A stretch of 64,000 nucleotides of DNA from a virus: the IMG/VR virus record IMGVR_UViG_3300036945_000847, positions 1 to 64,000 of that record. One strand, written 5' to 3'. The notes below the pieces were generated by a model. The model was not told the DNA's origin and searched no databases. It saw only the letters and a list, made by a program, of their open reading frames with translations. The translations under genes were made by a program, and so were the position numbers. This document shows, piece after piece, positions 12,232 through 34,330 of the stretch (positions are counted from its first letter, which is position 1; every line of letters begins with the position of its first letter).

Positions 12232-13343
12232 TATCTTCCTAATGAATTTAAAAATGTTTTAACTAGGGTGCTTAATGTATCGCACTCAGCATCGGTCAAA
12301 CCATATCCAACGGTAAAGAAACCGAAAGAACGGGTTGTTCCATCTTGTGTTGTATTATCTGCGTTGATTGCACCCATATAAAGGTCTAAGTTCGGGATGG
12401 GACTTACTATACGATTTGACGTATAAGCTCCCAACTCTACTGCCTCTCTCCTCATTCTCAAATCATTCTGAGCCTTGGTAGTAGTGATGTAATAACCTTG
12501 GTTACCACCATCTAAGAAATCGTAAACTACAACACGACCTGCAAGACCACCTTGGGCCCACATATCGGTAAAGTAGTTCTGTCCTACACCATCGAATACA
12601 AAGGTCATTCGATCGTCTCCACCAGGGACTGTATAATCTTGGATTGCGCCCCAAGCGATGTTTCTAGCCACCGTATTTGCATCAGGAGTATAGAATGATA
12701 CGTGAACATCAACAATTTGAGAATATCCCAAACTAGCAAAGTTCAAATTCAAATCTCCGAAGCCATTGGTTGTACCATCAAAGTCTACACCTTTCGTAAC
12801 TGAAGAACTGCCTGAGCCCCAACCTATCTGATGCTTTGCGATATTAACCAAATTGTAAGTTTTGGCAGTCAAATCAGCACCAACAAAAGGATAAATTACA
12901 TGAAATTTACTCCATAAACCAGCAGCTTTGATAGCTTTTACTAACTTATCTAATTCATCAATTTCCAACAAACTTTTAGTCTTATTGGCAACCACAAACT
13001 TCTTAACATCGACATCTAAATCGTCAAAGTTATCGATGATTTCCAAACCTTTTGACGTACCCAAAAAGGCAGCAATTTCAGCATCGCTTATCACACAATC
13101 TGCACAATTCTTGGAGAATCTGTTTGCAATACTGATTAGTTTGTCTTGATCCGTATCTTCATTACAAGCAATATTTTCAAGGGCGAATTTCAAAAACAAA
13201 CCCTTCTTGATATTCGACTCATATGATTTACAAGGCATATCGTACTTCATCTCGGCATATTGTTCCTCAATGAGCGTACAGATAGCCTTATCTACGGCTA
13301 AATATGCTTTAATGTATTGTTCTGTTGTATATTTAACAGCCAC
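12231..13343 (-). CDS. Tail protein with C-terminal lectin-like domain
   Basis: About 370 residues. The N-terminal half is helical with several Cys (C in SKNCADCVISDAE). From about residue 155 (FHVIYPFVGADLTAKTYNLV) a LamG-like fold begins, with VDFDGTTNGFGDLNLNF and the terminal TVGYGLTDAECDTLSTLV seen in many phage tail adhesins. A GTG at 13343 is chosen. An ATG at 13373 is possible but would overlap the upstream gene by 41 bases. Probable surface-binding tail component. Confidence 0.7.
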   Translation of the reverse strand: MAVKYTTEQYIKAYLAVDKAICTLIEEQYAEMKYDMPCKSYESNIKKGLFLKFALENIACNEDTDQDKLISIANRFSKNCADCVISDAEIAAFLGTSKGLEIIDNFDDLDVDVKKFVVANKTKSLLEIDELDKLVKAIKAAGLWSKFHVIYPFVGADLTAKTYNLVNIAKHQIGWGSGSSSVTKGVDFDGTTNGFGDLNLNFASLGYSQIVDVHVSFYTPDANTVARNIAWGAIQDYTVPGGDDRMTFVFDGVGQNYFTDMWAQGGLAGRVVVYDFLDGGNQGYYITTTKAQNDLRMRREAVELGAYTSNRIVSPIPNLDLYMGAINADNTTQDGTTRSFGFFTVGYGLTDAECDTLSTLVKTFLNSLGR

Positions 13344-13872
13344 AGCCCCTGCGAATTGAAGATGAACAACCATTCAGAGCATCATTAATGTCTGCATAGA
13401 TTTCTTCTGCAAGAACGTATTCCTCACACTCCATCACTTGCAACATCTTATCGTAAAGCATCTTTAACTCGGCATAGTCATTACAACTCATATCGCCCAA
13501 TGCCAACTTACCTAAAGCACACTTAATACTAGCGTCACGATAAGTATAGGTTGTTATTACTTCGCTATTTGCACCAACTGTGAAGGTTGTTACAAACTTC
13601 CAAATGCCATCAACTAAAGTCAATGTAGAGGCGATATCTTGAGAGCGAATTATATCATTGTCAAAATCGCCACCAGTCATTGTAATTGTTACAGCCGTAC
13701 CATCGGGACTAGTAGCGACAGTGCTAATAGCAGTTAAAGCAGAACGTGCTTCGTTCGGAGACCCCCAACCTTTGGGGTTAGTCACCGCATTATAGTCACC
13801 AGTAGAATCGATAATAATCAATTTACCGGTAGAATGAGTAAAGGTTACTATTGGATCTACACTTAATGCCAT
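13333..13872 (-). CDS. Tail-region structural protein
   Basis: 179 residues: a beta-rich N-terminal half (GDYNAVTNPKGWG, VTITMTGGDFDND) and an alpha-helical C-terminal half with repeated Cys (CALGKLALGDMSCNDY) ending RRGCGC. The helical half resembles the N-terminal region of the next gene, suggesting that they pair. Function unknown, likely virion. It has its own promoter with a 4-base gap to the ATG. Confidence 0.65.
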   Translation of the reverse strand: MALSVDPIVTFTHSTGKLIIIDSTGDYNAVTNPKGWGSPNEARSALTAISTVATSPDGTAVTITMTGGDFDNDIIRSQDIASTLTLVDGIWKFVTTFTVGANSEVITTYTYRDASIKCALGKLALGDMSCNDYAELKMLYDKMLQVMECEEYVLAEEIYADINDALNGCSSSIRRGCGC

Positions 13873-13895: not shown

Positions 13896-16800
13896 TTATT
13901 TTCCCCCTATGCCTATGAGTTTTTCGTAGTCGCCCTCGTTCAGAACACCCTTTCTCTTCATTTCCATAAGTAGAAAGCGCTCACGATTTTTGTAATCATT
14001 CTCATAATCCAAGTTAGCAGCACTTCTCGCTTCTGAATACAGAGAGAAGAAGTTTTCTATCTCCTCTTGGGCCAGCAACAAGTCACCATTTCTAATATAG
14101 GATTGAACCTTACCGATGACACCGTTGTCTACAGCATTGCTAACTTCTTGCATAGCGTAGAATTTCTGTAAACCTCTCTTCTTAAGCTCTTCACGATACA
14201 TAGCCAAAGGCAAAGAGTAAGTAGCAGAATACTTCTGTCTGATTTGACTTACAGATTGCTGTTGTCTTGTGTCCTCACTAGAGAAAGTAAACTCATTCTT
14301 TTTAGCATCGGTTACCAACTTAAGCAAATTCATCTTTTCTCCGTCTACTTCGTATACATATTCTGAGCCCGTAAGTTCAGCATAAGCCAAAGCCAAATTG
14401 ACCAAGGTAGTATGAATATTCATGGACCTTCTGTACAATTCTTTTTGCTCTTCTACTTGCTTAGTAGTCAATGTAAAACCACCTTTGTAAACTCTAGATG
14501 AGAATGGATTTACCATGGTTTCCAAGTAGGCTTGCGCTGTTCCAGGTTCAGATGTAGTTGTTCTGTACTGCATTTCTTCACCAAATGGGCCAATCTGTGC
14601 TTCATAATATTCATTCTTAGCCAAGAAGGATACGTTACGATTCAACTTCTGAATTGTATTGGCAAATATTTTACCGACTGAGTTTGGTAACACTCCATAT
14701 ACACCTTTTTGCATACTTGGTTCGTATTGAGGTTGCAACTGACTAAGACTTTGAATCAATTCTGCATTTCCTTTGCTGATAACAGACAAAACAGATGGCG
14801 AGAATACAGATAAAGAAGCAGCAGTTGTTCCCGAGGCCCAGTTACTAAATTTGTAACCTTTCTCATCTGTGAACGCTTGATAAATTCTAGTTGTACCCTG
14901 CAACATTGGAAGTTGTTTTGCACCACTAGTAAGTAACTCGCCAAACAATAGTCCGCCCAAACCATAACTAATCGCTTTCAATTTGTTCTTAGATTCCATT
15001 AACTCTCCTCTGTACGCACCATATGCAGAACTATAAGAACCCAAGGCATAACCGCTGATACCCATATTACCAAAACTATTTATTTGATCTCCGGGTTTAA
15101 CCGCACCGCCTCTTCGAATTGCAAAGTTATCTACGGGTTTACCAGAAAGTACAGCTTTCAAATATTCCATGTGAATAGTTCTGTTATATGTTCCAGCCTT
15201 AAGGTTTGCCGCTGGGTACAATTTATCCTTCTCTTCCCCTGGTTCAGATGAAGCAATTACAGCACCCGCAAGAACCGCTGTTGTAGCAAATGCAGCCACA
15301 CCAAACGATACCTCAATCTGAGCGAAATCATAAGTTACTTGGCGCTTCAATTTAACCAACTCCATCTTATCTTTTTCGTAAGCCTTCTTTTGGGCCTCGG
15401 TTGCAAACTTCTTAACAGCCTTTGGGTATTTCTTATCGAATTCATTTTGCTTTTTATCGTAGGCTCTCTGAGACCCATAATAAATCGTCAATGCAGCGGG
15501 AGGGAAACTCTTCTGAGTTGCAACATACACCACGTTCGCAGGAACCTTCGCAAAAGGAACAACGCTCCAAGCAACAACATCTGCTGTTTGTAAAGCTCTG
15601 AATTTCAAAGAAGTCATCAAATCGAACTTATCATTTCTCTGAATTTCTCTATATGTTTCTTTGATTCCTCCACGAATATTTTTTCTAATTGAACCGACAC
15701 CTTTGGCGAACATATTATCACCCAAGAATACTTTTTTCAAACCTTCTTTTTCAAAAGGATTGTCTCCCTCTAGACCAAAGTCAACGATGGACAACAATTT
15801 CTTAAGAGTATTACGATCGAGCGTCAAATCTCTGTCGGCAATGTAATCTTCAATAAAACCACCCGTGGCATCTCCATTTGCAGTATTCTTGAAGTAATCA
15901 ATCAACGCTCTAGTTGTGTAAGAGTTAGCAAATGCTTTATCGCCTCCTAAAGACATCAAACGACCCGTAACTTCTGTAGCTTGTGGAGCAAGAGTCCAAC
16001 CCCAGAATAAACTAGTCAACAATTTGTATGTCTTACCATCGGCAAGTTTCAAATCACCATTTTTGGTTTTATAAATAATTTGATTAAAGGCATCGGCATA
16101 CTCTTCATCTGTCATTTCCCACAACTTTTTACCATCAACTTTACCGAAGATAGAACCTAACATCTTGTAAGCCAAGTGAGTATCTTTGAAGAAGTTTACT
16201 TGAGCCAAACCATCGTAGAATTTCTCAATGTAATTAGGATCGCTTTCAAATCCATACTTCAACATCTCTGCCATGTCAGCCAACGTTTTATCTTTTGAAA
16301 TAGCAACTGCGTTTGCCCAGTTGGTCAAACTCAAAGTATCTGATTTCACACCACCAATCGCAGCGTCATATGCTTTTCTTGTACCAGCAACAATAAAATT
16401 CTGATTGAACAAAGCATTCTCCACGTTCGAAAGAATAGAAAGTCCAACAGTCTGAATTCCCAAAAGTGCTCGGCTACCACCGGATGTTAATCTATCATTC
16501 CAAAACTTAGGTTTGAAATTATCTAGGAATTTCATCAATCCCCTTGCGGAATTTCTCAATTCTTTTTCGGCTTTCTTTGCAGCATCATAATCTTGGTCAG
16601 AAAATGACTCAACAAAAGTGGCAGCAGCAGCATCCAAAGCATCTTTGCTTTGATTCAGTTGGGTAGTCAATCTTTCCAACTCCGCCTTTTGCTTTTCAGT
16701 AAGAGCAATACCCGCTCTTTCCAAACTTTTGGCAATCATTGAACCCATTTTCTTAGGGAACAAATTTCTGCCCAACTGCAACATGAAACCAGCATTAGAT

Positions 16801-19800
16801 AAAAGCGCACTGAAGGTCACTAGACCGTCTCTCAACTCCTCTTGGGTAGTCACACCCTCCAACTCCTTACGCATTGCAACAGCGGCCTCCGCTAGCCCTT
16901 TTTCTTCGAATGCATCTGCATATGCTTCAACCATCGACATAGCATCGGTGAAATCCATACCCGCTCTCTGCCAAGTTTCGTATAAATCATCCGCTACCTT
17001 TTTCTTTTTGATTGTGCGAGTATCAACAGTCAATTCATCAAGATAGTCATCGCTGAAGCCTTCCGATTCGATGGCATTCTTTATTGTGTTGCGATAGTCT
17101 GTTCCAAATACTTCTTTCAAATCTTCAGAACTCGCCATATCCATATTGTACATGGTTCTGAAAATCTCGTAGTGTGTGAAACCCTGATCGAGCAACTCAG
17201 AAACTTGTTCAGCCAAAGGCATCATATAGTTAGAGTTGATGAAGGTTTCAATATCTGAGGCCGTATCTCTTTTGGCTTGATTTAATTTCTCGATGCTTTC
17301 CACTGCCAACTCTGCGTGGGCTTGCTTGTATTTTGCCTCATCTACATATGGCAAACCCAATTGATTCTTGATATCGCTCAAAAGGTAACCCTTCTTAACG
17401 ATATTTTTGAGTGCTTCGGCTTCGGTCAAACCAGACATCAAATCAGATTGAAATTCAGGACTGATGTCACTAACATTCAATTGTGATTTACTCTTAACAT
17501 CGGGACTCAAAGCAGCATCTACAGCATTAATAAGTTCTGGATTGGTACCAGTTTCTTTTGCTTTCAGATACGCTCTAGCAACTTGATTAGAAACAACTTG
17601 TTTTGCATTTTTAACACTTCCATCGAGGTTAAAACCATAAGTCTCATAATCAAAAGGAGTAGTTCTAGGTAAGTCTTTTGCTTTATTTTCTTTGTTGATT
17701 TGGTCTACTTCTGCTTGAGTCAATACCTTATTGACTTTCATTTCGCCAGATATAATCCAACTTCCGGTCATATTTGAATTTGTCTTATACTTATAAGAAC
17801 CACCCAAAGGTACTTGGTCTGTGATGTGAGCAGTTTTTGCAATCGGTTGACCATTCTTGCCAATTTCTGCTCTTTCATTAGCAATTGTTTGCCAATCGAT
17901 ATCATTTCCAACTTCTACTTCTGCCCATACTTGATTGGGAGATCTAAATGAAGGAGCCTTATCGTTTTTGTTTACTTTAGATCCAATATGCGTAGCAAGA
18001 GGTATGTCACCCGAGTGCCAACCTGGTCTGTATGCCAAAGGCCCTAGTGTTGATTTAACCATAGTCTTACCTTCTTTAGTCTGAGTCAATGCTCCAGCCT
18101 TTGCTTGAATCCACTCGCCCGTAGTTATAGATTGATCCGCACCTACAAACAGAGGGAACAATTCACCAGGGAATCCCTTCTTAACCTTGAACAATTTGTA
18201 AACGGTCTTAGTTTCAGTAGGAACTTTAACATCATTGTTTATTAATTTCTTAAGGTCGTTTAACTTAGCATCTGATACCTTAGTTGATAAATCTGTAGAA
18301 ACAGTGCTTACTTCTTTTGGATTCAATTGTGCTTTAGAACTAAGATTAACTTCTCCATCCTCAATACCAAATTGTTCATCAGCAATTTTAAAATCCGCAG
18401 TTTTCATTGCTTCTCGTCCTTCTATACTAGGCTGAAAACCAATGCCTTTAGCCACATCTGTAGCAACATTTGTAACTTGTTCCTTTAGAAGACCCATTGG
18501 CTGCGCAATGGCTTTTTTAAATTCTATTTTTTTAGCTCCTTTTAAATCTGTATATCTTAATTCGGGAAGTATTTTAGTTTGAAAATCAACTTGCGCATTA
18601 GGAGGATAATTTTCCTTGATTTTTTCAACGGCTTCTTCCTTGTAACTTGTTTCGTTCTTAAAATTATCACGAACCAACTGATTTATTTTGTCATCGGCAT
18701 AAACTGCTCCTTCAATCGCACCTTTCTTGGGTTTCTTTGATGGAATCAGATTCTCACTTTTGAATTTCTCAGAAACTGCTTTATAATCAACCACCGTCTG
18801 TGGAACATTAAACCTTGCGAAATTCTTATTAACATCATATAGACCATCCAAAGCGAAATGTTTAGTACCGGGAAGTTTACCATTGAACAAGGGGTGAACA
18901 AATCCTTTGCTTTGCAAATCTTCAATTTCCTTATCCATTTCGGTTTTTTCTTTGATGTTAATTTCAAAACCACCAACAACAAAACCACCCTTATCACCGT
19001 TTATTATATCATCGCTCAAAAATGTCTTATCACCATACTCTTTCAAAAAACTTTGAGTATTGAATCCGTTGTTTAACAACAGTCTTTTGATGGTCGGTGC
19101 ATTTTTATTTACTTGTAAATCTGCTTTGTCTGGAACCAAACCTTGAAGAATCGCTTTGCGAGAATCAAAAGTTGTATCTTTTAAAAACTCCTTGGTGAAT
19201 TGATTAACATCAGTATTTGCATCAATAGAATCAACTAACTTAAATAAAGCAGATAATGTATTTCTTTTTCCGGTTCTGCTATCTTCTTTCTTCAGGTTTC
19301 TCATTGTCTCTTTATTGCTGAGAACCCATTCTTTAAATGAATTTTTAGCAGCTAACAATTCTTGAGGATTAGAAGATAACGATTTCATACCTCTGATGAA
19401 ATAATGAGACCCATATGAGTTATTTATAGTAGTATAAGGAGGCTGAATCATAACTAAAACAGCTACTTTATTATCACCATAAAACTTTCTTATTGCTGTT
19501 GTTGTAGCTTTAACGGTAGATGTATCTACAGAAGCAAAACCAACTCCATCTTCTTGATTTTTAGGATGCGTTAAGAAACCAAAACCTCCATAAATAGGAT
19601 TTCCTTCAGAATCAAGTCCATAACCTGTACCATCGCTTGTTATAATAAATAGTCTACCATTATATTCTTTAGCGATATCCTTAAGTGATTTAACTGGTAA
19701 AGCATTTGAAAAACTTTCCCCATTGAAAACTGCACCTTCGTATGAACCCAACTGCGATTTAGAAGTTGTCGATTCAAAATTATCATTGGGATTTACAGAA

Positions 19801-22800
19801 ACTGCAACACCAGCATTGAATTCGTCCGCATTTTCAACAAAGTCAGCAATCTCTTCCTGTTTGATTTCTTGTTCCTTAGGGCTTAATTCAGCAATAGGCT
19901 GATCAGTATTCAATACATTTGGGTTAACTATGTATAAGTTCTTCTCCTCTTTGTTCTGTAATCCGTTATCTACGAATTCTACTCCATCGAAGCCTGCTGT
20001 CTTAAGTGCATCTTTGAACTTTTTAATGTCTGAGGCCGAAAGACTAGTTTCACCCATGTTTGGATCGACCAACTCCATGAACATCAACTCATCTCTGTTG
20101 TACTCTGCATTCTGTGGTTTCAAATCCAAATCTTGCATTATCTTCATTGCCTCATCTTCAGTAGCAATGTTGCCAGTAATTTTGAATTCGTTTACAGCAT
20201 TTGGTTGCTCGCCTTGAGGACTTTGTTCTGCATATCTCTGTGCCTCTTCTTTGTTTTGGCTGACAAACAAAACGCCATCTTGACCCAACTTACCCAAGAT
20301 ATCAGGAGAACCTCCATGATATACAGGCAAGTCTTCAACTTCACCAACTTGTGCTTTAGTACTTACTTCTTTTTGACCTTCTTCGGTAGGGACTTGAGTT
20401 TCTGGTTGGGGTTCTCTTTGGACCACTTCTTCGCCAACTCTGGCTTCTGGCTGTACAGATACTTCACCTGCTGTTTGCTCTTGAACGGCATATTTGTTTA
20501 ATTTTTTGTTTAACTTACCTGACTTGATAGAATCGGACAAAGAGTTGAAGAAATCAGAAACCTCAACCACATCCGCAATGTCTTTAAATGGCACAACAGT
20601 ACCGAAAGTAATTTTAGATACAAACTGATTAATAAGGGCAGCAATCTTCTGCATGAGTGTTGTATCTACCTTGATGTTTTCGTTTGCCATCAATGCAGTC
20701 AACTGCGCAATATACTCCTCACCAATCTCTATACTTTTGTATTGCTTAACGAAATCATTTAACAATTTATTGTCGGAGTCCTTTACCAGAGCGGAAAGAC
20801 GATCTTTGAAATCTGTAAACAATTCAACATCCTCACCAAACACTTTTAACAATGCAGCGTGAGTTACCTCGTGAGCAATCGTAGTTTCGTTCGCCTTATC
20901 TAGGTTGACTTGGATTTCTACAGAGTATGTTCCATCTTGATTTTGTACATAAGCGAAATTACCGAATGACTCTTTCTTACCTTTAACATTTTTCATTTTG
21001 TCTTGGTATGATTCATCGGTATGTAGAACAATCTTAACGCCAGGCATAATGGTATCCAATACTTTCTGTGCGTTCTTGGCTTCTTGAACACGAGAATCCA
21101 ACTCTGCTTGATCACGAGTGCTAGAACTCAACAAATTATTCAACTCATCTTGATTCTCAACAGTAGCCGCATTCAGATTTGTTCCAGAACTATAAGCCTT
21201 AACTTCTTTAGAACCTTTCTTTTCAGCCAAGCCCTTGGTCATTTCTTGAACTGTAGCATTGATATCAGTATCCTTGGTACTTACTTTAACCAAACCCGTT
21301 TCAATGGCTTCTTTATTTCGTTCGATGATTTGAGTTGCTCTCTGCTTATCGGTAACATATTTGAAACCTCCTTTATTCTCGAATACTACAAAATCAACAT
21401 CTTTACCACCAACAAGGTCTTTCATTGTATTCTTCACAGACTCAATCTTACCTTGTACAAAGTCACGAAGTACATTACCTTCGGGAATAGCCTCTAGATT
21501 CTTTTCTAGCTCCTTCTGCTGACCCATAAGGTCAACATAGTACTTACTCTTGTTTTCGTCCTTTATGACGCTCTTGGCGCTTGGATACGTTGTTGCAATA
21601 TCACGTACTCCTTGAGCAATCATTTGGAATTCGCCTGCCTCAATCTGACCAGATTGCAATAGATATTCTGGAATGGCTTGAGCAGCGTTTGGTCCTATAA
21701 CATCAATTGCACTAGCAATCATTTGGTCGAGACCTCTCGGACCTATAAATTGTTTGAAAGCATCAATTCTTTTTTCTCTTTGGACAGATTCATATCTAGA
21801 TTTTACTACACCTGCTCCAGACATAACTGCAACACTAGGTAAAATTTCCAAAGCCAATGTTGGTCCTTCTGCCTGAGCATACTCTGCAAAGGTTGCATCT
21901 TTATATTTTGGGTCGTTATTTAATTTAGCCGCAGTATAATTCTGTACCAATTCCGTTACCAATTCGGGAGCATATTCAACCAATGCTAATTTACCTACAT
22001 CTTGTGCTACTGCCTTTGCGCTTATACCTCTTGCTGTACTGAAGAATTTTCCAGTAAATGGCATAAATTGTACTGCGTACAACGGAACCATTTGAGTTTG
22101 TATTTTTAATGTCTCCGCTGCTGATTTGCGAGCTTCTATTTCTGAGCCCGTTGCCTCAAATTTATCTTTGTAGTTTTGTCCTACTTGATCAACAGTATCT
22201 TGAGCCCAAGAAACCATTCCACCAATGTATGGATTTGCTGTAAGCACACCAGCAGAAATACCAGTTGCTAAGTTTGGAACTTGGTCCAAAATAGAACTTA
22301 GAGCAGCCTCAGTAGACTCAGAAAAACCCTCAGCATCGGCAAAAGTAAGATTTGACTTCTTATTGTTTACCTCTACATACTTGACATACTTAAGCATATC
22401 AGCCAAAGGATTATTTTCATAACCCACTGTGGCGTTAAGTGCTTCAATAGCATTGTCAAATGTTCTTGCTGTTGCAGCTTGTATTCTATCTCCGGCCCAT
22501 TCGACCAAAGCACCCGTTTTGAAATCTGCCTCCGACAATCTATTCGCCAAACTCTGAGAACTAAGTCTTTGTGCATCTCTACCATCCATAAACTCTTTGT
22601 ATGCATCTTGATGCATCTGAGTCAACTTCTCAACGGCTGCAAACGACACCTTACCATCCTTGACGGTCGCATCATACTTAGCATATAACTTATCTAATTC
22701 TGCCTTCTTAGTCTTTTCAATTTCGGCTTTTTTAATTCTGAAATTTTCTTCTGCTCTAGTGACAAGATTGTTTCTCAATTCAATCCCCTCTGTGGTTGCA

Positions 22801-24209
22801 TCTGAGACCATTCTCGTGTAAACCTCAGAGTCTGCAATCAATTCAGCCTCAGACAAATAACCACCAGTCTTAGAACGAGTTTCAATTTCCTTGGCGAAAT
22901 TTTCCAATTCAATTTTCTTATTCGTGCTGAAATCTGATATTTCCTTTGTGATATTTTCTATTGATGCATTTTGATATTCTTGCAAATTGCTAAAACCATA
23001 GTTGGCCAACTTACGAACTTCCAAATCAAACTCTTGCGGAATCTTCGTATAGTCAGTTACAGTCTTATTTTGCTTCGCTAATTTATCATTAAATACTTTT
23101 TCTTGACCTTCGCTAATCAATCTGTTCTCCGCCTCTTGCTGTACCAATCTAGTCAATCTGCGAGTAACAGTAGGTTGCAATTGCTCGGGCACTCCGCCCA
23201 TCGCACTACGAACATACTTTTCAACTTGATTGGAAACCTTAATCGGATCAACTTCAACAACCCCATCGTCATTACTAAACAAAAATCCTCCAGGTTGTTT
23301 GTTATTGGTAGTTGGCTGAATCCAAACACCATCAGTAATTAGATTTTTTGCATCTTTTGATAATTCCGCATCTAATTTTTGATTAGCAATTTGTTCTTCC
23401 TCGGCAGTTTTAACGGGTCTATTTTCAAACGCAAAATAAGAATTAAACACCTTATCTCTTTCATTCCCTGGAAGATTTGCGCTTTTAACTACGCTCGGAG
23501 CCTTTGGCTTGACCTTTAAACTCTCTGGAGTAAAGCCAGTAGCACTAGTAATTGTGATTCCTGAGTCCCTTAAAGATTTTTGTACATCCGGTTTATCAAA
23601 AAGATTCTTACTTTTAGTATAAATATTTTTGCCAAATGAGTCATTGATTTGCTTGATTTGTTCATTGAAATAACCTTTTTCTTTTAATTCCTTATACTTC
23701 GGATCGACAATCAAACGCTGAAAATCCGACAATGCCCTAAACGAGCCCTTGTCTATTTCTCCCTTAAATTCGTTCAGCTTCTGAACATACATATCGCTCA
23801 TCTGCTTATCCTTAGGATTAACAGCGGGCGGCTTTACGGGAGGAGCAAGGTTAGATTGAAATGATTTACCATAAACAGGTACTTCTGGCATTACATCACC
23901 GTAAACGCCAGCCATATTAATACCTTGTGCTTCTGCTCCTTCGGGAGTTACAACTTGATTGTCTTGCGGAATTCCCACCTCTGAGGCAGTCTCATTCCCA
24001 ACCGATTGCAAATTCGATAAAGAATCGCCTTCTTCTTTTTTTTTTAAGAACGATGTTGCATTTTCAACACCATACTGAATCTTCATGTCCTCATCTGCAT
24101 CAGGAGATTTTGCTAGATAATCTTCAAAATCTTTCTTAGTTGTAAATGTGTTATTAAATCTGTAATCAGATTTTAATTCATCGTAGAGTTCTTCGAAGTT
24201 ATTGGCCAT
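13896..24209 (-). CDS. Giant multidomain (polyvalent-type) internal virion protein
   Basis: 3,437 residues, one uninterrupted frame. Visible parts: charged coiled-coil-rich N-terminus; AHEVTHAAL near residue 1,110, an HExxH zinc-metallopeptidase motif; VYHGGSPDILGKLG near 1,290, resembling the start of ADP-ribosyltransferase (ART) domains; an unassigned domain near 1,520 (FIITSDGTGYGLDSEG...FGFLTHPK); another near 2,060 (LAYRPGWHSGDIPLATHIG); a helical region of 2,400-2,900; hydrophobic segments near 2,970-2,995. Such polyvalent proteins are known to be injected with phage or plasmid DNA and act in the new host. It lies in the internal virion cluster, as do the large cargo proteins of crAss-like phages. 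Ejection and enzymatic roles are inferred. Confidence 0.85.
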   Translation of the reverse strand: MANNFEELYDELKSDYRFNNTFTTKKDFEDYLAKSPDADEDMKIQYGVENATSFLKKKEEGDSLSNLQSVGNETASEVGIPQDNQVVTPEGAEAQGINMAGVYGDVMPEVPVYGKSFQSNLAPPVKPPAVNPKDKQMSDMYVQKLNEFKGEIDKGSFRALSDFQRLIVDPKYKELKEKGYFNEQIKQINDSFGKNIYTKSKNLFDKPDVQKSLRDSGITITSATGFTPESLKVKPKAPSVVKSANLPGNERDKVFNSYFAFENRPVKTAEEEQIANQKLDAELSKDAKNLITDGVWIQPTTNNKQPGGFLFSNDDGVVEVDPIKVSNQVEKYVRSAMGGVPEQLQPTVTRRLTRLVQQEAENRLISEGQEKVFNDKLAKQNKTVTDYTKIPQEFDLEVRKLANYGFSNLQEYQNASIENITKEISDFSTNKKIELENFAKEIETRSKTGGYLSEAELIADSEVYTRMVSDATTEGIELRNNLVTRAEENFRIKKAEIEKTKKAELDKLYAKYDATVKDGKVSFAAVEKLTQMHQDAYKEFMDGRDAQRLSSQSLANRLSEADFKTGALVEWAGDRIQAATARTFDNAIEALNATVGYENNPLADMLKYVKYVEVNNKKSNLTFADAEGFSESTEAALSSILDQVPNLATGISAGVLTANPYIGGMVSWAQDTVDQVGQNYKDKFEATGSEIEARKSAAETLKIQTQMVPLYAVQFMPFTGKFFSTARGISAKAVAQDVGKLALVEYAPELVTELVQNYTAAKLNNDPKYKDATFAEYAQAEGPTLALEILPSVAVMSGAGVVKSRYESVQREKRIDAFKQFIGPRGLDQMIASAIDVIGPNAAQAIPEYLLQSGQIEAGEFQMIAQGVRDIATTYPSAKSVIKDENKSKYYVDLMGQQKELEKNLEAIPEGNVLRDFVQGKIESVKNTMKDLVGGKDVDFVVFENKGGFKYVTDKQRATQIIERNKEAIETGLVKVSTKDTDINATVQEMTKGLAEKKGSKEVKAYSSGTNLNAATVENQDELNNLLSSSTRDQAELDSRVQEAKNAQKVLDTIMPGVKIVLHTDESYQDKMKNVKGKKESFGNFAYVQNQDGTYSVEIQVNLDKANETTIAHEVTHAALLKVFGEDVELFTDFKDRLSALVKDSDNKLLNDFVKQYKSIEIGEEYIAQLTALMANENIKVDTTLMQKIAALINQFVSKITFGTVVPFKDIADVVEVSDFFNSLSDSIKSGKLNKKLNKYAVQEQTAGEVSVQPEARVGEEVVQREPQPETQVPTEEGQKEVSTKAQVGEVEDLPVYHGGSPDILGKLGQDGVLFVSQNKEEAQRYAEQSPQGEQPNAVNEFKITGNIATEDEAMKIMQDLDLKPQNAEYNRDELMFMELVDPNMGETSLSASDIKKFKDALKTAGFDGVEFVDNGLQNKEEKNLYIVNPNVLNTDQPIAELSPKEQEIKQEEIADFVENADEFNAGVAVSVNPNDNFESTTSKSQLGSYEGAVFNGESFSNALPVKSLKDIAKEYNGRLFIITSDGTGYGLDSEGNPIYGGFGFLTHPKNQEDGVGFASVDTSTVKATTTAIRKFYGDNKVAVLVMIQPPYTTINNSYGSHYFIRGMKSLSSNPQELLAAKNSFKEWVLSNKETMRNLKKEDSRTGKRNTLSALFKLVDSIDANTDVNQFTKEFLKDTTFDSRKAILQGLVPDKADLQVNKNAPTIKRLLLNNGFNTQSFLKEYGDKTFLSDDIINGDKGGFVVGGFEINIKEKTEMDKEIEDLQSKGFVHPLFNGKLPGTKHFALDGLYDVNKNFARFNVPQTVVDYKAVSEKFKSENLIPSKKPKKGAIEGAVYADDKINQLVRDNFKNETSYKEEAVEKIKENYPPNAQVDFQTKILPELRYTDLKGAKKIEFKKAIAQPMGLLKEQVTNVATDVAKGIGFQPSIEGREAMKTADFKIADEQFGIEDGEVNLSSKAQLNPKEVSTVSTDLSTKVSDAKLNDLKKLINNDVKVPTETKTVYKLFKVKKGFPGELFPLFVGADQSITTGEWIQAKAGALTQTKEGKTMVKSTLGPLAYRPGWHSGDIPLATHIGSKVNKNDKAPSFRSPNQVWAEVEVGNDIDWQTIANERAEIGKNGQPIAKTAHITDQVPLGGSYKYKTNSNMTGSWIISGEMKVNKVLTQAEVDQINKENKAKDLPRTTPFDYETYGFNLDGSVKNAKQVVSNQVARAYLKAKETGTNPELINAVDAALSPDVKSKSQLNVSDISPEFQSDLMSGLTEAEALKNIVKKGYLLSDIKNQLGLPYVDEAKYKQAHAELAVESIEKLNQAKRDTASDIETFINSNYMMPLAEQVSELLDQGFTHYEIFRTMYNMDMASSEDLKEVFGTDYRNTIKNAIESEGFSDDYLDELTVDTRTIKKKKVADDLYETWQRAGMDFTDAMSMVEAYADAFEEKGLAEAAVAMRKELEGVTTQEELRDGLVTFSALLSNAGFMLQLGRNLFPKKMGSMIAKSLERAGIALTEKQKAELERLTTQLNQSKDALDAAAATFVESFSDQDYDAAKKAEKELRNSARGLMKFLDNFKPKFWNDRLTSGGSRALLGIQTVGLSILSNVENALFNQNFIVAGTRKAYDAAIGGVKSDTLSLTNWANAVAISKDKTLADMAEMLKYGFESDPNYIEKFYDGLAQVNFFKDTHLAYKMLGSIFGKVDGKKLWEMTDEEYADAFNQIIYKTKNGDLKLADGKTYKLLTSLFWGWTLAPQATEVTGRLMSLGGDKAFANSYTTRALIDYFKNTANGDATGGFIEDYIADRDLTLDRNTLKKLLSIVDFGLEGDNPFEKEGLKKVFLGDNMFAKGVGSIRKNIRGGIKETYREIQRNDKFDLMTSLKFRALQTADVVAWSVVPFAKVPANVVYVATQKSFPPAALTIYYGSQRAYDKKQNEFDKKYPKAVKKFATEAQKKAYEKDKMELVKLKRQVTYDFAQIEVSFGVAAFATTAVLAGAVIASSEPGEEKDKLYPAANLKAGTYNRTIHMEYLKAVLSGKPVDNFAIRRGGAVKPGDQINSFGNMGISGYALGSYSSAYGAYRGELMESKNKLKAISYGLGGLLFGELLTSGAKQLPMLQGTTRIYQAFTDEKGYKFSNWASGTTAASLSVFSPSVLSVISKGNAELIQSLSQLQPQYEPSMQKGVYGVLPNSVGKIFANTIQKLNRNVSFLAKNEYYEAQIGPFGEEMQYRTTTSEPGTAQAYLETMVNPFSSRVYKGGFTLTTKQVEEQKELYRRSMNIHTTLVNLALAYAELTGSEYVYEVDGEKMNLLKLVTDAKKNEFTFSSEDTRQQQSVSQIRQKYSATYSLPLAMYREELKKRGLQKFYAMQEVSNAVDNGVIGKVQSYIRNGDLLLAQEEIENFFSLYSEARSAANLDYENDYKNRERFLLMEMKRKGVLNEGDYEKLIGIGGK

Positions 24210-25743
24210 TTAGATATAGGTTATTTATATAATCGTTAATTTCTTGATATTTATTTTCGTCAATCAATTTCTTCAATGCGGGATCTGCTTTGAGTTTTTG
24301 ATTAAATAGAGTTGTGGCCTTGGCAGCATCATTCTTTTGCGCTTGTATATTTTCATCAACAATACCAGCCTCTTGCTTATTTCCAATTAGACCGCTAGAT
24401 GAGAAATTTCTTGCGGGAATATAGTAATATTGTCCGGGCTTTCCAAACATAACGAACGGAGCAACGCCTAATATATACTTACTGGATACCTTTGCTCCTT
24501 TTTGAATAGGATAAGTTCTAGTCACTCCATTTTCTGTCACTTGACCATATGGAAGAACGACAGATTGAATTACCTTCTTATCACTCAATACAGCACCACT
24601 AGCAGCAGTACCATCGGCATTGGATGTTTGACCAGTCACAACACCGCTGTAACCATCCGCTGGCAACCCATATTCATCATGGGTATAATATTCAATTTCA
24701 GCACCGCTAGGTTCTTTACCCAACTTAAGAATATTCTTAGTTTTGGTTCTGCTCATAACGCTTTGCTTTTCGGAGTCCCCAAAATTAAATACACTGCGTC
24801 CTTTGACAGTACTTGTCTTGACTGTAGGGTTTGAATATTCTTCTAAGTACTTCAACAAGTACTCATTCAACTTGCCTTGGTCTTCTGGAGTATAATAACC
24901 AGTATTAGGATCAACTTCAAAACCTAAATTCTTAGAATCTACCAACTGAACCATCGCCTCTGGTCTTTGAGTGATATAAGCCAAAGAAATATCTTCTAGA
25001 GATCTTGGTCTACCATCAGGATACAACTGAGGATTATCTTCATATGCTTTTTGAGCGGATGCTATACGAACAGGTCTTTGTTGAACCATTGTTGTTTTTA
25101 CACCACCTTCTCCAATAGGAGTATTGTAAGAAGAAGCAATTGTTTTGTCTAATTTGTTTGCATCGGTCTCAAGTTCGTTCTCCACGGGAATAACAGATGC
25201 ACCTCTGTACTTAGGAATACCATCTTCATTGATTTGAAAAAATGGGTCATTCTTAATTCCTTTCTTTGCCAAATTTCCTTGAAGTTCACTATGCGATGTT
25301 GCCTTTCCATTTTCAACAAGATAGTTCTTGAAGTTTTTAGTAAAGTAAACTTTGTTCTTATCTAAACTTTGAGTCTGAGCATCAAATTTATTATACTCAT
25401 CGCTCAGAGATTTATATTTTACTAATTCCAAATCGAACTCATTAGCCAATTTATAACCTTCGTTAACCCAAGATGGATTACCGCTTGTTTTAAGTTTATG
25501 CAATCTATCGATATACTCACTAGCAGTTTTAATCAAGTCTGGAGCAACCAAACGATTATAACTACCATCTATTTTGAAATTCTTTTCTAATTCTTTTGCA
25601 GCATTCGCAGCAGCAACATCGGCTTTTGCCGCACGTGCCTTATCTGCTTGAGCCGCTTGAAACGCAAGTCTACCTACTCTCTGAGCACTATCTAGTTTAC
25701 CTTGCAGTGCTATTCCTTGACCTAATGTTGAGGGTGTTGCCAT
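24199..25743 (-). CDS. Internal virion protein
   Basis: 514 residues. The N-terminus (LDSAQRVGRLAFQAAQADKARAAKADVAAANAAKELE) is a long Ala-rich amphipathic helix as in podovirus ejection proteins. The remainder has repeated YKLANEFDLELVKYK-type helices and beta segments. It overlaps the giant protein start by 11 bases and follows the 246-residue gene by 2 bases, so the three are made together, probably as the DNA-ejection complex inside the head. Confidence 0.7.
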   Translation of the reverse strand: MATPSTLGQGIALQGKLDSAQRVGRLAFQAAQADKARAAKADVAAANAAKELEKNFKIDGSYNRLVAPDLIKTASEYIDRLHKLKTSGNPSWVNEGYKLANEFDLELVKYKSLSDEYNKFDAQTQSLDKNKVYFTKNFKNYLVENGKATSHSELQGNLAKKGIKNDPFFQINEDGIPKYRGASVIPVENELETDANKLDKTIASSYNTPIGEGGVKTTMVQQRPVRIASAQKAYEDNPQLYPDGRPRSLEDISLAYITQRPEAMVQLVDSKNLGFEVDPNTGYYTPEDQGKLNEYLLKYLEEYSNPTVKTSTVKGRSVFNFGDSEKQSVMSRTKTKNILKLGKEPSGAEIEYYTHDEYGLPADGYSGVVTGQTSNADGTAASGAVLSDKKVIQSVVLPYGQVTENGVTRTYPIQKGAKVSSKYILGVAPFVMFGKPGQYYYIPARNFSSSGLIGNKQEAGIVDENIQAQKNDAAKATTLFNQKLKADPALKKLIDENKYQEINDYINNLYLNGQ

Positions 25744-25745
25744 TT

Positions 25746-26486
25746 TTATCTTAATTTAGGAGTAAAGCCCAATCCGGCTGGTTTACCTCCTAGTGAATAG
25801 TTAGGTATTCCACCAGTTGAAGTGTATTGACTCGGAGTCCCAAACTTTCTATAAAGTGATAAAGGATTAGCGAATGGATTAACTGCGCTAGGTTCTCCAG
25901 CGGTCATGCCATTGACATCTCTATAAGCCTGTCTGTCTTTTTCTGCATTTTCCATGCTCATTTTCGATGTAGTATAACCTTCCAAAGCGCCCATTCCGCT
26001 ATAAACAGCATCTTGAACTCCTTGACCAAATGCTTGCTGTCTTCTGTTGTAATCACTTATATCTTCGGCCACTTGTCTTTGCTGCAAACCACTGAGTTGC
26101 TGATTGGCACCCATTCTGATTGCTTGACCTCTTTCAGAAGCGGCTTGGCTTTGCGCTGCCAATCCCATACCAAACTGTGCATTGCTTGATGCACCCATTC
26201 TAGATATCGCACTTGACAATTGCCCTCCAGATGTATCTGTAGCTGCACGATAACTACCCGCTCTTGCTTGACCAAAACCTTCTTTTGCCGTGGCCAAAGC
26301 AATTGGAGACAACCCCCTTCTTTCTTGAGCTAATCCCAACTGCCTATTTTCTTGAATTGGGGCAGCAGCATCTATGTATTCAGCTTTCCTCTCACCCTTC
26401 ATTCCCATCAATCCTTGGGCGCTCTTAATACCTCGATAGATAGAGGTTCCCAATTGTACTCCGGCTAGTATTGCTGGTAATGCCAT
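25746..26486 (-). CDS. Ala/Gly/Gln-rich internal virion protein
   Basis: 246 residues. The N-terminus (MALPAILAGVQLGTSIYRG) is weakly hydrophobic, followed by Ala-, Gln- and Arg-rich helices with small-residue motifs (GASSNAQFGMGLAAQSQAA). Composition and position match the small membrane-active ejection protein of podoviruses (T7 gp14-like role), which helps form the channel across the envelope. This role is inferred. Confidence 0.65.
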   Translation of the reverse strand: MALPAILAGVQLGTSIYRGIKSAQGLMGMKGERKAEYIDAAAPIQENRQLGLAQERRGLSPIALATAKEGFGQARAGSYRAATDTSGGQLSSAISRMGASSNAQFGMGLAAQSQAASERGQAIRMGANQQLSGLQQRQVAEDISDYNRRQQAFGQGVQDAVYSGMGALEGYTTSKMSMENAEKDRQAYRDVNGMTAGEPSAVNPFANPLSLYRKFGTPSQYTSTGGIPNYSLGGKPAGLGFTPKLR

Positions 26487-26492: not shown

Positions 26493-26524
26493 CAAATTTA
26501 GTTTATTTTTATTGATTATACAAA
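26493..26524 (-). promoter_or_regulatory. Promoter of the ejection-protein operon
   Basis: Leftward TTTG (26524-26521), 20 bases, TAAATTTG (26500-26493), then 6 bases to the ATG at 26486. It is a near-perfect Bacteroidota promoter and predicts an mRNA with almost no leader. Confidence 0.75.
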
Positions 26525-29500
26525 CGAGCCATTGTCCTAAACTTGACAATGAAGTTAATCAGTTTCTGTTTTGCAGAACTTGACTCAAGAGAAATTTTTA
26601 CTTTCAACCATTTACCCCACAGTCGTGATGTATCTCCATTATTCAAACCGCTGATGGTAGAATCGTTTTTGATTGGGCTATACCACAAATCCTCTCTCTT
26701 TTCGAACTCGGTTTCATCCAAATAAGAAATTTGAGTAGGTGTGGTCAAGTATACTTCAAAAGGTTGTCTATCCGTTACAAATTGTAACGCTTCGAAGTTC
26801 TTACTGACGTTTGGTTCATAGTTCATCACCGCTGTTATAGTGGCGGGGTAGTATGTTCCATAGTAAGTGGATTCTGAGCCCCTATCATGAAGGTATAAAG
26901 TTTTTGTCAAACCAACCGTAGGATTAGGAGAAAAGAAAGTGTTTTTGTAACGCAAGTAGATATTTGGGTAGTAAGAATGAAAACAGATAAATCCATTTTT
27001 CAATTCATCATACACCAGAGTAAACTGTTTATTTGTTACTCCTTCTGTGTACTTGAATGTAAAAATAGCCTCACCATACTTATCATTCCACACACCATTG
27101 ATTCCTTTTCCGGTCAGTGGGTATTTATCATTGAGTCCAAACTTACCATTGTTTGTTAAATAACTTATCAATCCCTTATCGCTAATTACTCTTGTACCAT
27201 CTTGACCGAAACGAACAACTTTTTGACTCTGATCGTTATACCAATAGAAAGTATCTTTACCTGTTGTGGTTTTTCCTTTAACGTGGGCCCACTTGTTAAA
27301 TATTCCAATTGCTGTCAACTCTTGACCTGGAGCACCCAAGATTGAGCCACTACCTACAACAACATCTGATCCTTCTTGAGAACCCAATAGAGATGCATCT
27401 CTGAAGTATTGTCTCTGTACACTAAATGGTTGCCAAGTATAAAAAGAATTGTTTATAATATCGTGATGCACAATTGGTCCAAATGTCAAATCTAAATCTA
27501 CAAAATCCAAAGGTTTGAATGTTCTGTAGTTATCTTTCTGAGACCCAATCACTTTCTTAGCAGACCATGTTACACGTGAAGGTAAAGAACCATCGTATTT
27601 AACATTTGAATTATAGTTGGTTTCGATAATCGTATCATCTTTGTAATTATACGAACGACTATAGTTATTTTGATTACTTACTTCGGGCCATTGCTCCAAC
27701 CAATAAAATAGTCCACTACCTATCGAACCTTCTGGAAGCGCAGTAAGTACGGGACTTCCTAAATAATCAACCCAATAATTACCAGTGGAGTTTTTATCTA
27801 AATATTGAGGGAACACATAACCTGGACCACTGAAGGAATCATCATGATCCAAGATATTGAACATCTGATAATTACCACTGTTCTGACTATAGAAAGAAAT
27901 ACCATAACCCATACCCCAAAGCAAATTATTGTGAGGCATACGATGAATTGCCATGTGACTCTTCTGTATGAATGTGTCTCCACCATAAACCGAAATGTTG
28001 TTTATTACTCCGCTTTGGCCGGGGGTCAAAAGATAATAATGGCCGGTACTTTCATAGAAACTCAATTCTTTGTTGGCGGGGTATTTTTTATTACCTCCTA
28101 AATCTCTAAAGATTTGTCCATACCACATCCCATTATCTGTTAATCCCGTATTGGTATGTGCTTTAGAACTAATTTTGAATACTTCGCTTGATGCAAGATT
28201 CGAATAAAGAGTTTGCCACGCATACGCTGCCGAAACAGTCTTCGTATTCAAAGAAGTGTTAGAACCAGTTTCTAAATGAGTATGGTGAGTAGCAAGAAAA
28301 TCTGTGTAATTTTGTGTAGTAGCACCGAAGTACCCTCCATAATCTTGATACGAACTATTATTACTTCCGTTTGCGTGTCTTTGGTTTGCTCTAGAATGCC
28401 CAGAAAAAATAGCGTGCTCATATGGAGCAGCTGCCAATCTTACTTTATCGGTGCTTGCATTAAACTGATAATCAGCATTGTTAAAATAAAAATCAGGACT
28501 ATAGAAGAAGAGATAATCGGAATAGTCAGTTGCACCAGTACCTCCACAAACTGATACGAGCGAACTAGTACTACTAGTACCAATAGCTAAATTCTGAGCG
28601 GTTCCAAAAATGTAACCTGCATTATTTCTCATTAGCGGATTAGCCACACCAAGCGTTGTTCCGTTTTGAATTCCTAAGAAGGGAACAATTGGAAAGGTAG
28701 TAGTAAATCGTCCATCTGAATGTTCAACACCAGCATAAAATATACCAGTCGCTAAAACCTCAGGAATCCTTTTACTTCTAACTATTCTGAACCCGCTAAT
28801 TAAATCACGAATTCTTTTTCCGCCAACAACAGCATTCAAATTGATATTGTTGAAATTGACATGATAATATTTGACTCTATTGTTGGATGTATCTTGCAAA
28901 TTGATATCCACACCACTTACCGAAGCATCTCTTCTATTGCCGATTACATTCGTTGCAGAGCCATCAATTCTTATATCATCAATCCAATAAGGTAAACTCC
29001 ACTTGTTATATTCTTTCCACTGTACTTGAATACCAAAACGATAGGTATCATTATACATATAGGAAGTGTAATCAAATGTGTTATTAGGAACTAAATACTC
29101 TCCGTACTTATGGTCTGTAAAACTATTTACCAAGTTTTGATTTTGCTCAAATGATTTACCGACACCTTCGATGTAACCTTGTTCTATACTATGACGAATG
29201 GTCTGAGCCCAATTGGCCAAATTCAAATCTACACTCTCTGTTAAATTACTAAGTGTAATTCTATTATCAAAAACTTTTAAACTCTGAGATGTCAAATACT
29301 TTGAGGTAATTGCGACTAACTCATTGTTACTCAATATAATATTTTCTTGTCCTAGATTCGTATGTTCTACATCGATACTAGTTTGATTTGAGGCAAGTTT
29401 GAATCTTTGAACAATTACCGCACTAAACGCAGCATCTTTATATTCAATCGCAACAAGTTCGAAATAAGTATATAAATCTGGAGTAATATTTTCAATAGTC

Positions 29501-30639: not shown

Positions 30640-31136
30640 TATACGTTAGCTAGTTTTTGTGTTTGATATTCCCTCTGATAGTTTTGCATTACTGCAACAC
30701 CAAAATCTTTAATGTATCTACGTGTGTATTTCCATCCGATATAAGCAACCAACATACGTTCCCAATCATCGGGAACAATTAGACCGCCATCAGAATCAAT
30801 ATTCAATCCATAGTATCTGAAAGTAAACTTTGTACCATCGGCAATTCCGAGACCCGAATCAAAAATGATACAATCGTTTTGAATTCCATAATCGATATCA
30901 GGACACAACTTCTCTCCACTACCACACAAATACAAGCCCATGATTCTCAACCAACCTTCAGGAAGAGTAATTTTATTATCGTAAGCCTTAAGAATCACAT
31001 CGATTTCTTTAAACTTGCGAGGAGTCTTATGTGTTTTAACAGCCTGGTTAATCAGAACCTCAAACCACAAGGCGTTGTTTTCATAAGAAGCATTTAATTC
31101 TTCTGATGCCGCAGCTATTACATCTTGTACTTTCAT
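30639..31136 (-). CDS. Tail ring/adaptor protein
   Basis: 165 residues with NNALWFEVLINQAVKTHKTPRKF and DWERMLVAYIGWKYTRRYI. Size and gene order match the small ring (connector) proteins between the portal and the stabilisation protein. It overlaps both neighbours, so this operon is tightly coupled. The exact ring position is unknown. Confidence 0.65.
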   Translation of the reverse strand: MKVQDVIAAASEELNASYENNALWFEVLINQAVKTHKTPRKFKEIDVILKAYDNKITLPEGWLRIMGLYLCGSGEKLCPDIDYGIQNDCIIFDSGLGIADGTKFTFRYYGLNIDSDGGLIVPDDWERMLVAYIGWKYTRRYIKDFGVAVMQNYQREYQTQKLANV

Positions 31137-31771
31137 CGTGGTATATTAGTTTGGTTATCGTTATTTGGTTCAACTGGAACACGAGTTTTACGAATCAAGT
31201 CGAGAGTAATCATTTCAACAATATCTTTCTTCAAGTTCTCATCAACTGGATAGTGATCTAACTCTTTATCATAGTTAGGAATAGTTGTAGGATTATTAAA
31301 CATCGCTCTGACCATAATATATGCCAAATGCTTTGCGTTGTAAAACTGCAATACATTTCTACCTTGAGTCATGTGCTTATAGTCCCACATAACCTCTGTC
31401 TTCTTCCCAAATAAAGAATGGCGTGTGAGTGTTGTAAATCCTTTACGGATGCGTACAAAGGGCTTTAAACCGTCTGAATGACCAACGTAGATGAATCCAT
31501 CTGCTTGACCATCGAGCGAAATGACATTGGGACATTCAAAAGTCTTAACTTCACACTCTTTTTCGTCTTCGCTAAAACGCATATCCAAAGTCTGTATCCA
31601 AGCATCGTTGATGAACTTACCACTCTTCATCATGTAGTTCATGATTAATGTAGCACGGGCACCATGAATTTTGTTCTCAATGTATTCATCATCGAAACGA
31701 CTATCGTTGTAAGTCATTCCACTATGTAAGTCGCTCTTAATTTCGTCTACGATTTCTTGTAAGTAAATCAT
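31133..31771 (-). CDS. Tail ring protein (tubular A-like)
   Basis: 212 residues, starting MIYLQEIVDEIKSDL and containing YENKIHGARATLIMNYMMKSGKF-like helices and a beta middle. It corresponds in position and length to the gp11-like tail tubular protein of podoviruses. 4-base overlaps occur at both ends. No catalytic motif is seen. Confidence 0.65.
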   Translation of the reverse strand: MIYLQEIVDEIKSDLHSGMTYNDSRFDDEYIENKIHGARATLIMNYMMKSGKFINDAWIQTLDMRFSEDEKECEVKTFECPNVISLDGQADGFIYVGHSDGLKPFVRIRKGFTTLTRHSLFGKKTEVMWDYKHMTQGRNVLQFYNAKHLAYIMVRAMFNNPTTIPNYDKELDHYPVDENLKKDIVEMITLDLIRKTRVPVEPNNDNQTNIPR

Positions 31772-32553: not shown

Positions 32554-32559
32554 TTATAT

Positions 32560-32567
32560 CAAAGATA
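32560..32567 (-). promoter_or_regulatory. Promoter -7 element before the ring genes
   Basis: Leftward TATCTTTG, 6 bases before the ATG at 32553. The -33 region is poor, so the confidence is moderate. Confidence 0.5.
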
Positions 32568-32583
32568 CAAAAAAACAAGTAAA

Positions 32584-32608
32584 GTAAAAAGGGGGACCAT
32601 GCCCCCTT
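32584..32608 (-). terminator. Intrinsic terminator after the 283-residue gene
   Basis: Leftward AAGGGGG, a 5-base loop, CCCCCTT and a T run. It closes the 33485-32634 unit immediately before the ring-gene promoter. Confidence 0.8.
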
Positions 32609-32633
32609 AATACAGAAATACTAAAAACTAGGT

Positions 32634-33485: not shown

Positions 33486-33494
33486 AACTTTTTA

Positions 33495-33526
33495 CAAATA
33501 TAAATTATTTTACTACCTAAAACAAA
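33495..33526 (-). promoter_or_regulatory. Promoter before the 283-residue gene
   Basis: Leftward TTTG (33526-33523), 20 bases, TATATTTG (33502-33495), then 9 bases to the ATG. It matches the Bacteroidota consensus perfectly. Confidence 0.75.
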
Positions 33527-33554: not shown

Positions 33555-33572
33555 CTTGAGATTGGTTATTTA

Positions 33573-34319: not shown

Positions 34320-34330
34320 AGTTATAAATA

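What the first reader, a model, noticed from the sequence alone, without database searches (positions are those of the whole stretch)
13896..24209. 3,437-residue polyvalent virion protein with peptidase and ART-like parts
Seen: AHEVTHAAL, VYHGGSPD and at least two other unassigned compact domains within one protein in the ejection gene cluster. Known: polyvalent proteins carry effector domains into hosts. Inference: a set of injected effectors including a zinc peptidase and perhaps an ADP-ribosyltransferase, with the domain near 1,520 (TSDGTGYGLD...FGFLTHPK) unassigned and possibly new.
Basis: partly seen in the sequence, partly recalled or inferred. Interest (0 to 1): 0.55.

Follow-up and report, generated by a model that had tools for sequence, protein, structure and literature searches.

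The report
Giant phage cargo protein with punctuated modules
This phage encodes a very large protein, probably carried inside the virus particle and injected into bacteria, in which swappable effector modules are separated by a short recurring signal that changes in step within each protein and may be a cutting or docking site.

Summary
The 3,437-aa ORF (13896-24209, minus strand) is real and intact. It sits three genes after a crAss-type muzzle gene, where crassviruses encode virion cargo. Calling it a polyvalent protein is right. The zincin has a complete active site (H1113, E1114, H1117, E1165). The YHGG domain has one clear ART-like relative, but F1315 replaces the expected strand-2 Tyr. 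The "1520" domain is not unique: it occurs in 21 other ORFs fetched here, mostly just after a zincin; fold unresolved (weak YTH-like match). Residues 1997-2191 (phrog_30118) give weak ART-fold matches.

The main new result lies between the modules. A short motif, roughly [STNA][KR][ASG]Q[LK], stands in low-confidence linkers at residues 1284, 1483, 1958 and 2240. In 23 related giants, 66 of 87 motif sites lie within 10 aa of a homology-block end (random 19.1). Variants are concerted within a protein (SKSQ, NKGQ, ARAQK). A 75%-identical relative exchanged its whole effector block exactly at motifs 1284 and 2240. I propose an injected polyprotein whose modules are released by cleavage at these sites. 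Cleavage is inferred, not shown; many relatives have an HExxE zincin, so it cannot be the general cutter.

The parts
13896..24209 (-). giant polyvalent cargo protein, 3437 aa
   Evidence: synteny
21105..24209 (-). N-terminal chassis, residues 1-1035, conserved in the C-chassis family
20514..21074 (-). zincin-like metallopeptidase domain, residues 1046-1232; H1113 E1114 H1117 E1165
20346..20363 (-). junction motif 1, STKAQV, residues 1283-1288
   Evidence: pLDDT <50
19890..20348 (-). ART-like (H-Y-D type) domain, residues 1288-1440; H1298, F1315 in place of Tyr, D1414
19749..19766 (-). junction motif 2, TSKSQL, residues 1482-1487
   Evidence: pLDDT <50
18819..19697 (-). 1520 domain (D1520), residues 1505-1797, unassigned; weak YTH-like fold match
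18324..18341 (-). junction motif 3, SSKAQL, residues 1957-1962
   Evidence: pLDDT <50
17637..18221 (-). phrog_30118 domain, residues 1997-2191; weak ART-superfamily fold matches
17478..17495 (-). junction motif 4, KSKSQL, residues 2239-2244
   Evidence: low pLDDT
13905..17444 (-). C-terminal chassis, residues 2256-3435
24199..25743 (-). 514-aa neighbour, conserved directly upstream of the giant in relatives
25746..26486 (-). 246-aa neighbour, conserved in relatives
26509..30639 (-). crAss-type muzzle protein (PF25731 E 2e-53)
31133..31771 (-). crAss-type tail ring protein 2 (PF25702 E 4.1e-11)
13333..13872 (-). 179-aa neighbour directly downstream of the giant, conserved in relatives

Best explanation
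The protein is a polyvalent virion cargo protein of a phage with crassvirus-type tail genes. Conserved N- and C-terminal chassis (about residues 1-1035 and 2256-3435) carry it in the particle, and a zincin sits at the end of the N chassis. Between zincin and C chassis lies a cassette of exchangeable effector modules: an ART-like domain, D1520, and a possible second ART-like domain (phrog_30118). Each module boundary is marked by a short lineage-specific motif, about [STNA][KR][ASG]Q[LK], in a flexible linker. Shown here: architecture, module exchange at the motifs, concerted variation of the motif within each protein, and low model confidence at the motifs. Inferred: the protein is ejected with the DNA, and a phage or host factor recognises the motif and cuts there, so that each effector works as a separate enzyme in the host.
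For: Cargo position next to muzzle and ring genes, order conserved in relatives. One recognised module per motif-bounded slot in L047: ART / methyltransferase / Kinase-PolyVal between NKAQ1318, NKGQ1503, NKGQ1704, NKGQ1973. In 8 family giants 26 of 26 hits of [STN]K[ASG]Q fall between zincin and C chassis (shuffle expectation 1.18 there, 4.66 in all) and 0 in recognised domains (pattern fitted to these proteins). Held-out: L074, 2 of 3 hits in the cassette; 24 R-group giants, 44 of 69 hits of [STNAV][KR][ASG]Q in cassettes against 7.4 expected. Homology-block ends: 68 of 243 within 5 aa of a motif, random 12.9. Concerted variants: within-protein identity 0.259 against 0.212, 0 of 2000 permutations as high. 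Window versus L044 DNA homology stops at residue 1283.3 and resumes at 2240.0. All four window motifs lie in low-pLDDT linkers. Codons of the motif copies differ, so selection seems to act on the peptide.
Against: No proteomics or processing data. The obvious cutter, the embedded zincin, has HExxE or HExxD in many giants that keep the motif. The major capsid protein has no such site; elsewhere in the window's ORFs the pattern occurs singly, e.g. VKSQ at portal residue 117 and one match each in two tail-region proteins. No phage protease gene was recognised among the ORFs scanned. In L074 one hit lies inside a chassis domain, against my written prediction. Outside cassettes the R-group shows no depletion of the motif (25 hits, about 22.7 expected), as a strict cleavage code might predict. 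Elemo-type giants have the zincin but not this motif.
Confidence: 0.5

Rival explanations
1. Same polyvalent cargo protein, but the junction motif is a docking site, not a cut site. It binds a partner (portal, small cargo protein, chaperone or unfoldase) that loads or threads the modules one by one through the tail; the protein stays whole.
For: Same placement and concerted variation; the crAss cargo gp45 is bound at portal and tail barrel, and cargo must partly unfold to pass (PMC10172136, passages); no protease found; zincin degenerate in many motif-bearing giants.
Against: No partner identified. Motifs are confined to the effector cassette and absent from N and C chassis in 8 of 8 family giants, where loading sites would be equally expected.
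Confidence: 0.25
2. The motif is a by-product of modular evolution: a shared short linker that marks where cassettes were joined, with no recognition by any factor.
For: Motifs coincide with homology-block ends and with both exchange points between window and L044; a longer Q/E/P-rich linker also travels between positions.
Against: Motif codons differ between copies, so it does not look like a DNA-level recombination site; variants change together within a protein, and homologous junctions carry S or N according to the protein they are in.
Confidence: 0.12
3. The zincin cuts its own protein at the junctions, as proposed in general for polyvalent proteins.
For: Proposed in PMC5512222 section 8 (read); the window zincin is complete; the motif-bearing C-chassis giants (window, L006, L007, L044, L047-L051, L074) all have HExxH.
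Against: Most R-group giants have HEAWE or similar yet dense motifs; zincins without this motif are common.
Confidence: 0.13

Closest known systems
Polyvalent proteins of phages and conjugative elements (Iyer et al. 2017, PMC5512222)
   Same: Many disparate domains in one polypeptide; zincin with HExxH plus distal Glu; H-Y-D type ART; Kinase-PolyVal and other modules in relatives. The paper already predicts processing by zincins.
   Different: A sequence-defined junction motif is not in the sections read (8, 9, 29) and 'linker' occurs 0 times in the text; most R-group zincins are HExxE.
Flavobacterium phage elemo gp18, 3694 aa 'structural protein' (NC_055853)
   Same: Giant in the corresponding gene position, zincin 28% identical; probable D1520 (24% alignment; fold match to an elemo structural protein, E 3.1e-3).
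   Different: No detectable homology of its N and C regions by BLASTP, other modules (DUF3293 note); the canonical motif is absent, with only TRQQK 2078 and VRMQK 2301 as look-alikes.
Crassvirus phicrAss001 cargo proteins gp45-gp50 (PMC10172136)
   Same: Muzzle and ring genes alongside; cargo coded after the muzzle.
   Different: crAss cargo is described as channel-forming and RNA polymerase proteins; the words zincin, peptidase and polyvalent do not occur in that paper.
Prohead-protease processing of internal head proteins (SPN3US gp245, PMC10052503; T4, recalled)
   Same: Short cleavage motif in proteins of the head, several of them probably ejected (passages).
   Different: There the identified cleavages produce N-terminal propeptides apart from the protease's own; here motifs separate effector modules, and the major capsid protein lacks the motif.

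Membership tests
Polyvalent protein (Iyer 2017) | several domains of disparate predicted activity in one polypeptide | tested here: met
   zincin, ART-like, D1520, phrog_30118 in the window; kinase, methyltransferase, weak GNAT in relatives
Polyvalent protein (Iyer 2017) | transferred into the host with the invading DNA | not testable with these tools
   only gene position supports it
Polyvalent-type zincin MPTase | three-strand sheet, N-terminal helix, two C-terminal helices, HExxH and a Glu on the second helix | tested here: met
   H2-15, E20-24, E44-50, E56-63, H71-85 then further helices; H1113, E1114, H1117, E1165; best VIA rows Certhrax and anthrax lethal factor, Z 7.3-6.3 over 134-159 residues, a Z the tool calls middling
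Tox-ART-HYD2-like ART | His in strand 1 | tested here: met
   H1298 in YHGG, shared with L047
Tox-ART-HYD2-like ART | Tyr in strand 2 | tested here: not met
   F1315 in the window, Tyr in L047
Tox-ART-HYD2-like ART | Asp in strand 5 | tested here: inconclusive
   D1414 is shared with L047, but the strand order was not resolved in the model
ART superfamily (phrog_30118 domain) | ART fold | tested here: inconclusive
   tankyrase 2 and rifampin ART Z 4.2, PE-like toxins 3.7 over about model 504-701; below the tool's noise guide
YTH domain (D1520) | YTH fold | tested here: inconclusive
   top 12 VIA rows are YTH, Z 6.0-4.8, below the tool's guide of 7-8 for models without a clear match; Foldseek itself gave none at E 0.001
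Crassvirales | crAss-type muzzle and ring proteins | tested here: met
   PF25731 2e-53, PF25702 4.1e-11
Crassvirales | position in the order's tree | not tested
   the related genus Elemovirus is not placed in Crassvirales in NCBI taxonomy

The most novel reading that the evidence does not exclude
The giant is an injected effector polyprotein with its own punctuation code: a phage or host factor, co-evolving with the protein, recognises one lineage-specific K/R-x-Q motif at every junction and releases the effectors, which lets phages exchange effector cassettes without losing delivery or release.
Probability: 0.4. Interest if true: 0.82.

Novelty: new variant of a known kind. Interest (0 to 1): 0.62.

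Why it matters
How polyvalent phage proteins with several enzymes pass a narrow tail and then work separately is open; zincin self-processing was proposed without known cut sites. A motif that marks module boundaries and changes in step within a protein gives exact, testable sites, a way to find module borders in unannotated giants, and a handle to find the recognising factor. It also links crAss-type virion genes to polyvalent effectors; a search of the held library for both terms found one paper, on an N4-like phage (listing only).

Tried and rejected
Unsupervised recurrence search for 4-letter patterns did not recover the motif in the window; it was seen by eye and then tested. A broader [FY]S.[RK] junction motif in other polyvalent lineages, suggested by QYSVRTKPAP-type sequences, was enriched in only 1 of 8 giants tested, so I dropped it. 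Capsid-protease idea: no motif in the major capsid protein. DNA-level recombination site: codons differ. Pfam on the whole giant gave nothing above cut-off; PDB sequence search gave none. Foldseek against PDB gave nothing at E 0.001 for either model. Near DNA search of phages with window 30000-38900: none. tblastn of residues 1-1050 against phages: none. Genome-contig scan with the C chassis: none.

Rows dropped before counts: near-duplicate L050 and fragment L002; copies of contigs already held (L005, L011, L028, L041, L045, L046, L054, L060, L068, L070, L071); the copies of training R-group proteins L080, L089, L092, L094, L095; giants lacking a recognised zincin or chassis, or with a cassette under 200 residues. 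The 24 held-out giants are not mutually independent (L090 and L100, for example, look like close copies). In one search I chose 23 giants of the two motif-bearing families; it therefore tests placement, not prevalence.

Full report
Observation. The window is part of a 69,485-base virus record. The ORF at 13896-24209 (-) is intact, 3437 aa. HEVTH starts at residue 1113 and YHGG at 1297. Pfam finds no family above cut-off in it; PHROGs finds phrog_30118 at residues 2000-2193, E 6.3e-57.

Setting. Upstream in the same direction lie portal and a weakly crAss/SU10-like major capsid protein, ring protein 2 and a 1376-aa crAss-type muzzle protein (PF25731, E 2e-53), then 246-aa and 514-aa genes, then the giant. 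The order muzzle, 246, 514, giant, 179, 380 is kept wholly or in part in L044, L006, L048, L049, L051 and L074 (short or truncated loci show only some genes). In phicrAss001 the cargo proteins gp45-gp50 are virion proteins and must partly unfold to pass a tail barrel with constrictions below 50 A (PMC10172136, passages). The giant in the corresponding position of the cultured Flavobacterium phage elemo (3694 aa) is annotated 'structural protein'; I saw the label only, no proteomics.

Domains. HMM iteration over ORFs of the fetched loci gives: N chassis, zincin 1046-1232, ART-like 1288-1440, D1520 1505-1797, phrog_30118 1997-2191, C chassis. Zincin: in 27 aligned rows H1113 and E1114 are 27/27, H1117 24/27, E1165 27/27; model confidence is high and the best structural rows are Certhrax, anthrax lethal factor and PPEP-3, Z 7.3 to 5.8, which the tool calls middling. 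ART: only L047 has a clear homologue; H1298 and D1414 are shared, and F1315 stands where L047 has Tyr. D1520: 21 other ORFs in the fetched set carry it (some from related contigs); of the 21 giants with both domains in that table, window included, it begins within about 80 residues of the zincin in 18 (not in the window, L007 and L044). Conserved polar residues include S1525, D1526, N1551, Q1589, N1597, Y1599, R1684, D1727, H1772, so an enzyme or ligand-binding domain is likely (inference). Its top 12 VIA rows are YTH domains at Z 6.0-4.8, too weak to assign. The phrog_30118 domain was found in 32 viral loci (some of them copies of one contig), in some as short proteins on their own (L023, L024), and the structural rows over it are mostly of the ART superfamily (tankyrase, rifampin ART, PE-like toxins; Z about 4).

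Junction motif. Reading the protein I saw STKAQV, TSKSQL, SSKAQL and KSKSQL between the modules. In the window [STAV][KR][AS]Q occurs 4 times against 0.86 expected, 7 of 500 shuffles reaching that. All four lie in linkers of low model confidence. Relatives carry their own versions: SKSQ four times in L006; NKAQ, NKGQ, NKGQ, NKGQ in L047; NKSQ, NKSQ, NKGQ in L049; NKSE, NKSQ, NKSQ in L044; AR[AS]QK in L008. In 8 C-chassis giants, 26 of 26 [STN]K[ASG]Q hits fall in the cassette (expected 1.18) and none in a recognised domain. That pattern was fitted on these proteins, so I wrote down predictions before looking further. One new family member, L074, had 2 of 3 hits in the cassette and one inside a chassis domain, so most but not all predictions held. 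A second chassis family gave 24 held-out giants with 69 hits of [STNAV][KR][ASG]Q: 44 in cassettes against 7.4 expected, 25 elsewhere against about 22.7, and 16 in recognised domains, several of them a TRGQ/TKGQ inside the zincin. Six members (L091, L102, L104, L122-L125 less one) are poor: L091, L102, L104, L122, L123, L124 and L125 have no strict hit in the cassette, although several of them have related ones such as IKAQK, PKFQK or VKFQK there.

Modules and motif coincide. In L047 each slot between motifs holds one recognised domain: ART, methyltransferase (E 1.7e-6), Kinase-PolyVal (E 1e-17). One block containing an HYS motif (ART-like by eye only) precedes phrog_30118 in L008 and follows it in L009 and L012, with motifs on its borders. 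Across 23 giants of the two motif-bearing families, 68 of 243 homology-block ends lie within 5 aa of a motif (random 12.9, maximum 24 in 500 draws) and 66 of 87 motifs have a block end within 10 aa (random 19.1, maximum 27). L044 is about 75% identical to the window in DNA on both sides, yet the block between residues 1283.3 and 2240.0 is replaced; those points are junction motifs 1 and 4.

Concerted change. In 33 non-redundant giants, 204 loose x[KR]xQ instances in cassettes are more alike within a protein than expected (0.259 against 0.212; 0 of 2000 permutations as high). The set includes background matches, which dilute the signal. Codons of the copies differ. Selection on the peptide, by something that sees all copies, is the simplest reading.

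Mechanism. I think the protein is packed, ejected in an unfolded or partly unfolded state, and then separated into single effectors by cleavage at the motifs (about 0.5 for the whole account). Iyer et al. proposed zincin processing (abstract, passages and sections 8, 9, 29 read). The zincin is complete in the window family, but HExxE or HExxD occurs in many motif-bearing relatives, so the zincin is not a general answer. No other protease was recognised in the window genes I scanned, which were the larger ORFs and not all of them. A docking motif for loading or threading is the main rival (0.25).

Novelty. Polyvalent proteins are known; motif punctuation of their modules is, to my searching, not described: 'linker' is absent from the 2017 paper, and library searches with polyvalent protein plus linker (10 of 13 listed) and crAss-like plus polyvalent protein (1 listed) showed nothing on it in their listings. 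The library lacks many journals.

Noticed in passing
window 44798-45146 (+): Phage-encoded tmRNA with a 25-aa tag peptide, found by ARAGORN and Rfam (RF00023, E 1.9e-34), followed by a tRNA-Ala(CGC) at 45494-45567.
   Followed up: partly
giant residues 1241-1286 (window about 20352-20489, -): A Q/E/P-rich linker (AVQEQTAGEVSVQPEARVGEE...) recurs at 46-67% identity in other giants at different positions relative to the zincin: a second, longer mobile linker.
   Followed up: no
zincins of L008, L010, L012, L081-L086, L103, L110, L118-L120: Second zinc-ligand His replaced by Glu (HEAWE, HEVWE, HEIWE); other lineages have HESSD or HENTD: inactive or differently ligated zincins.
   Followed up: partly
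window 54751-55503 (+) and 57261-57911 (+): Serine resolvase/recombinase (PF00239, E 1.7e-34) and ThyX-type thymidylate synthase (PF02511, E 1.6e-34) in the right arm.
   Followed up: no
window 11647-12231 (-); L051:15731-16306: The 194-aa gene (phrog_3000, weak endolysin match) is 94% identical to a gene in L051 although the giants share only 29-34% identity over their chassis, suggesting recent transfer.
   Followed up: no
L023, L024, L026: The phrog_30118 domain also exists in 218-286 aa proteins on its own in other phages.
   Followed up: no
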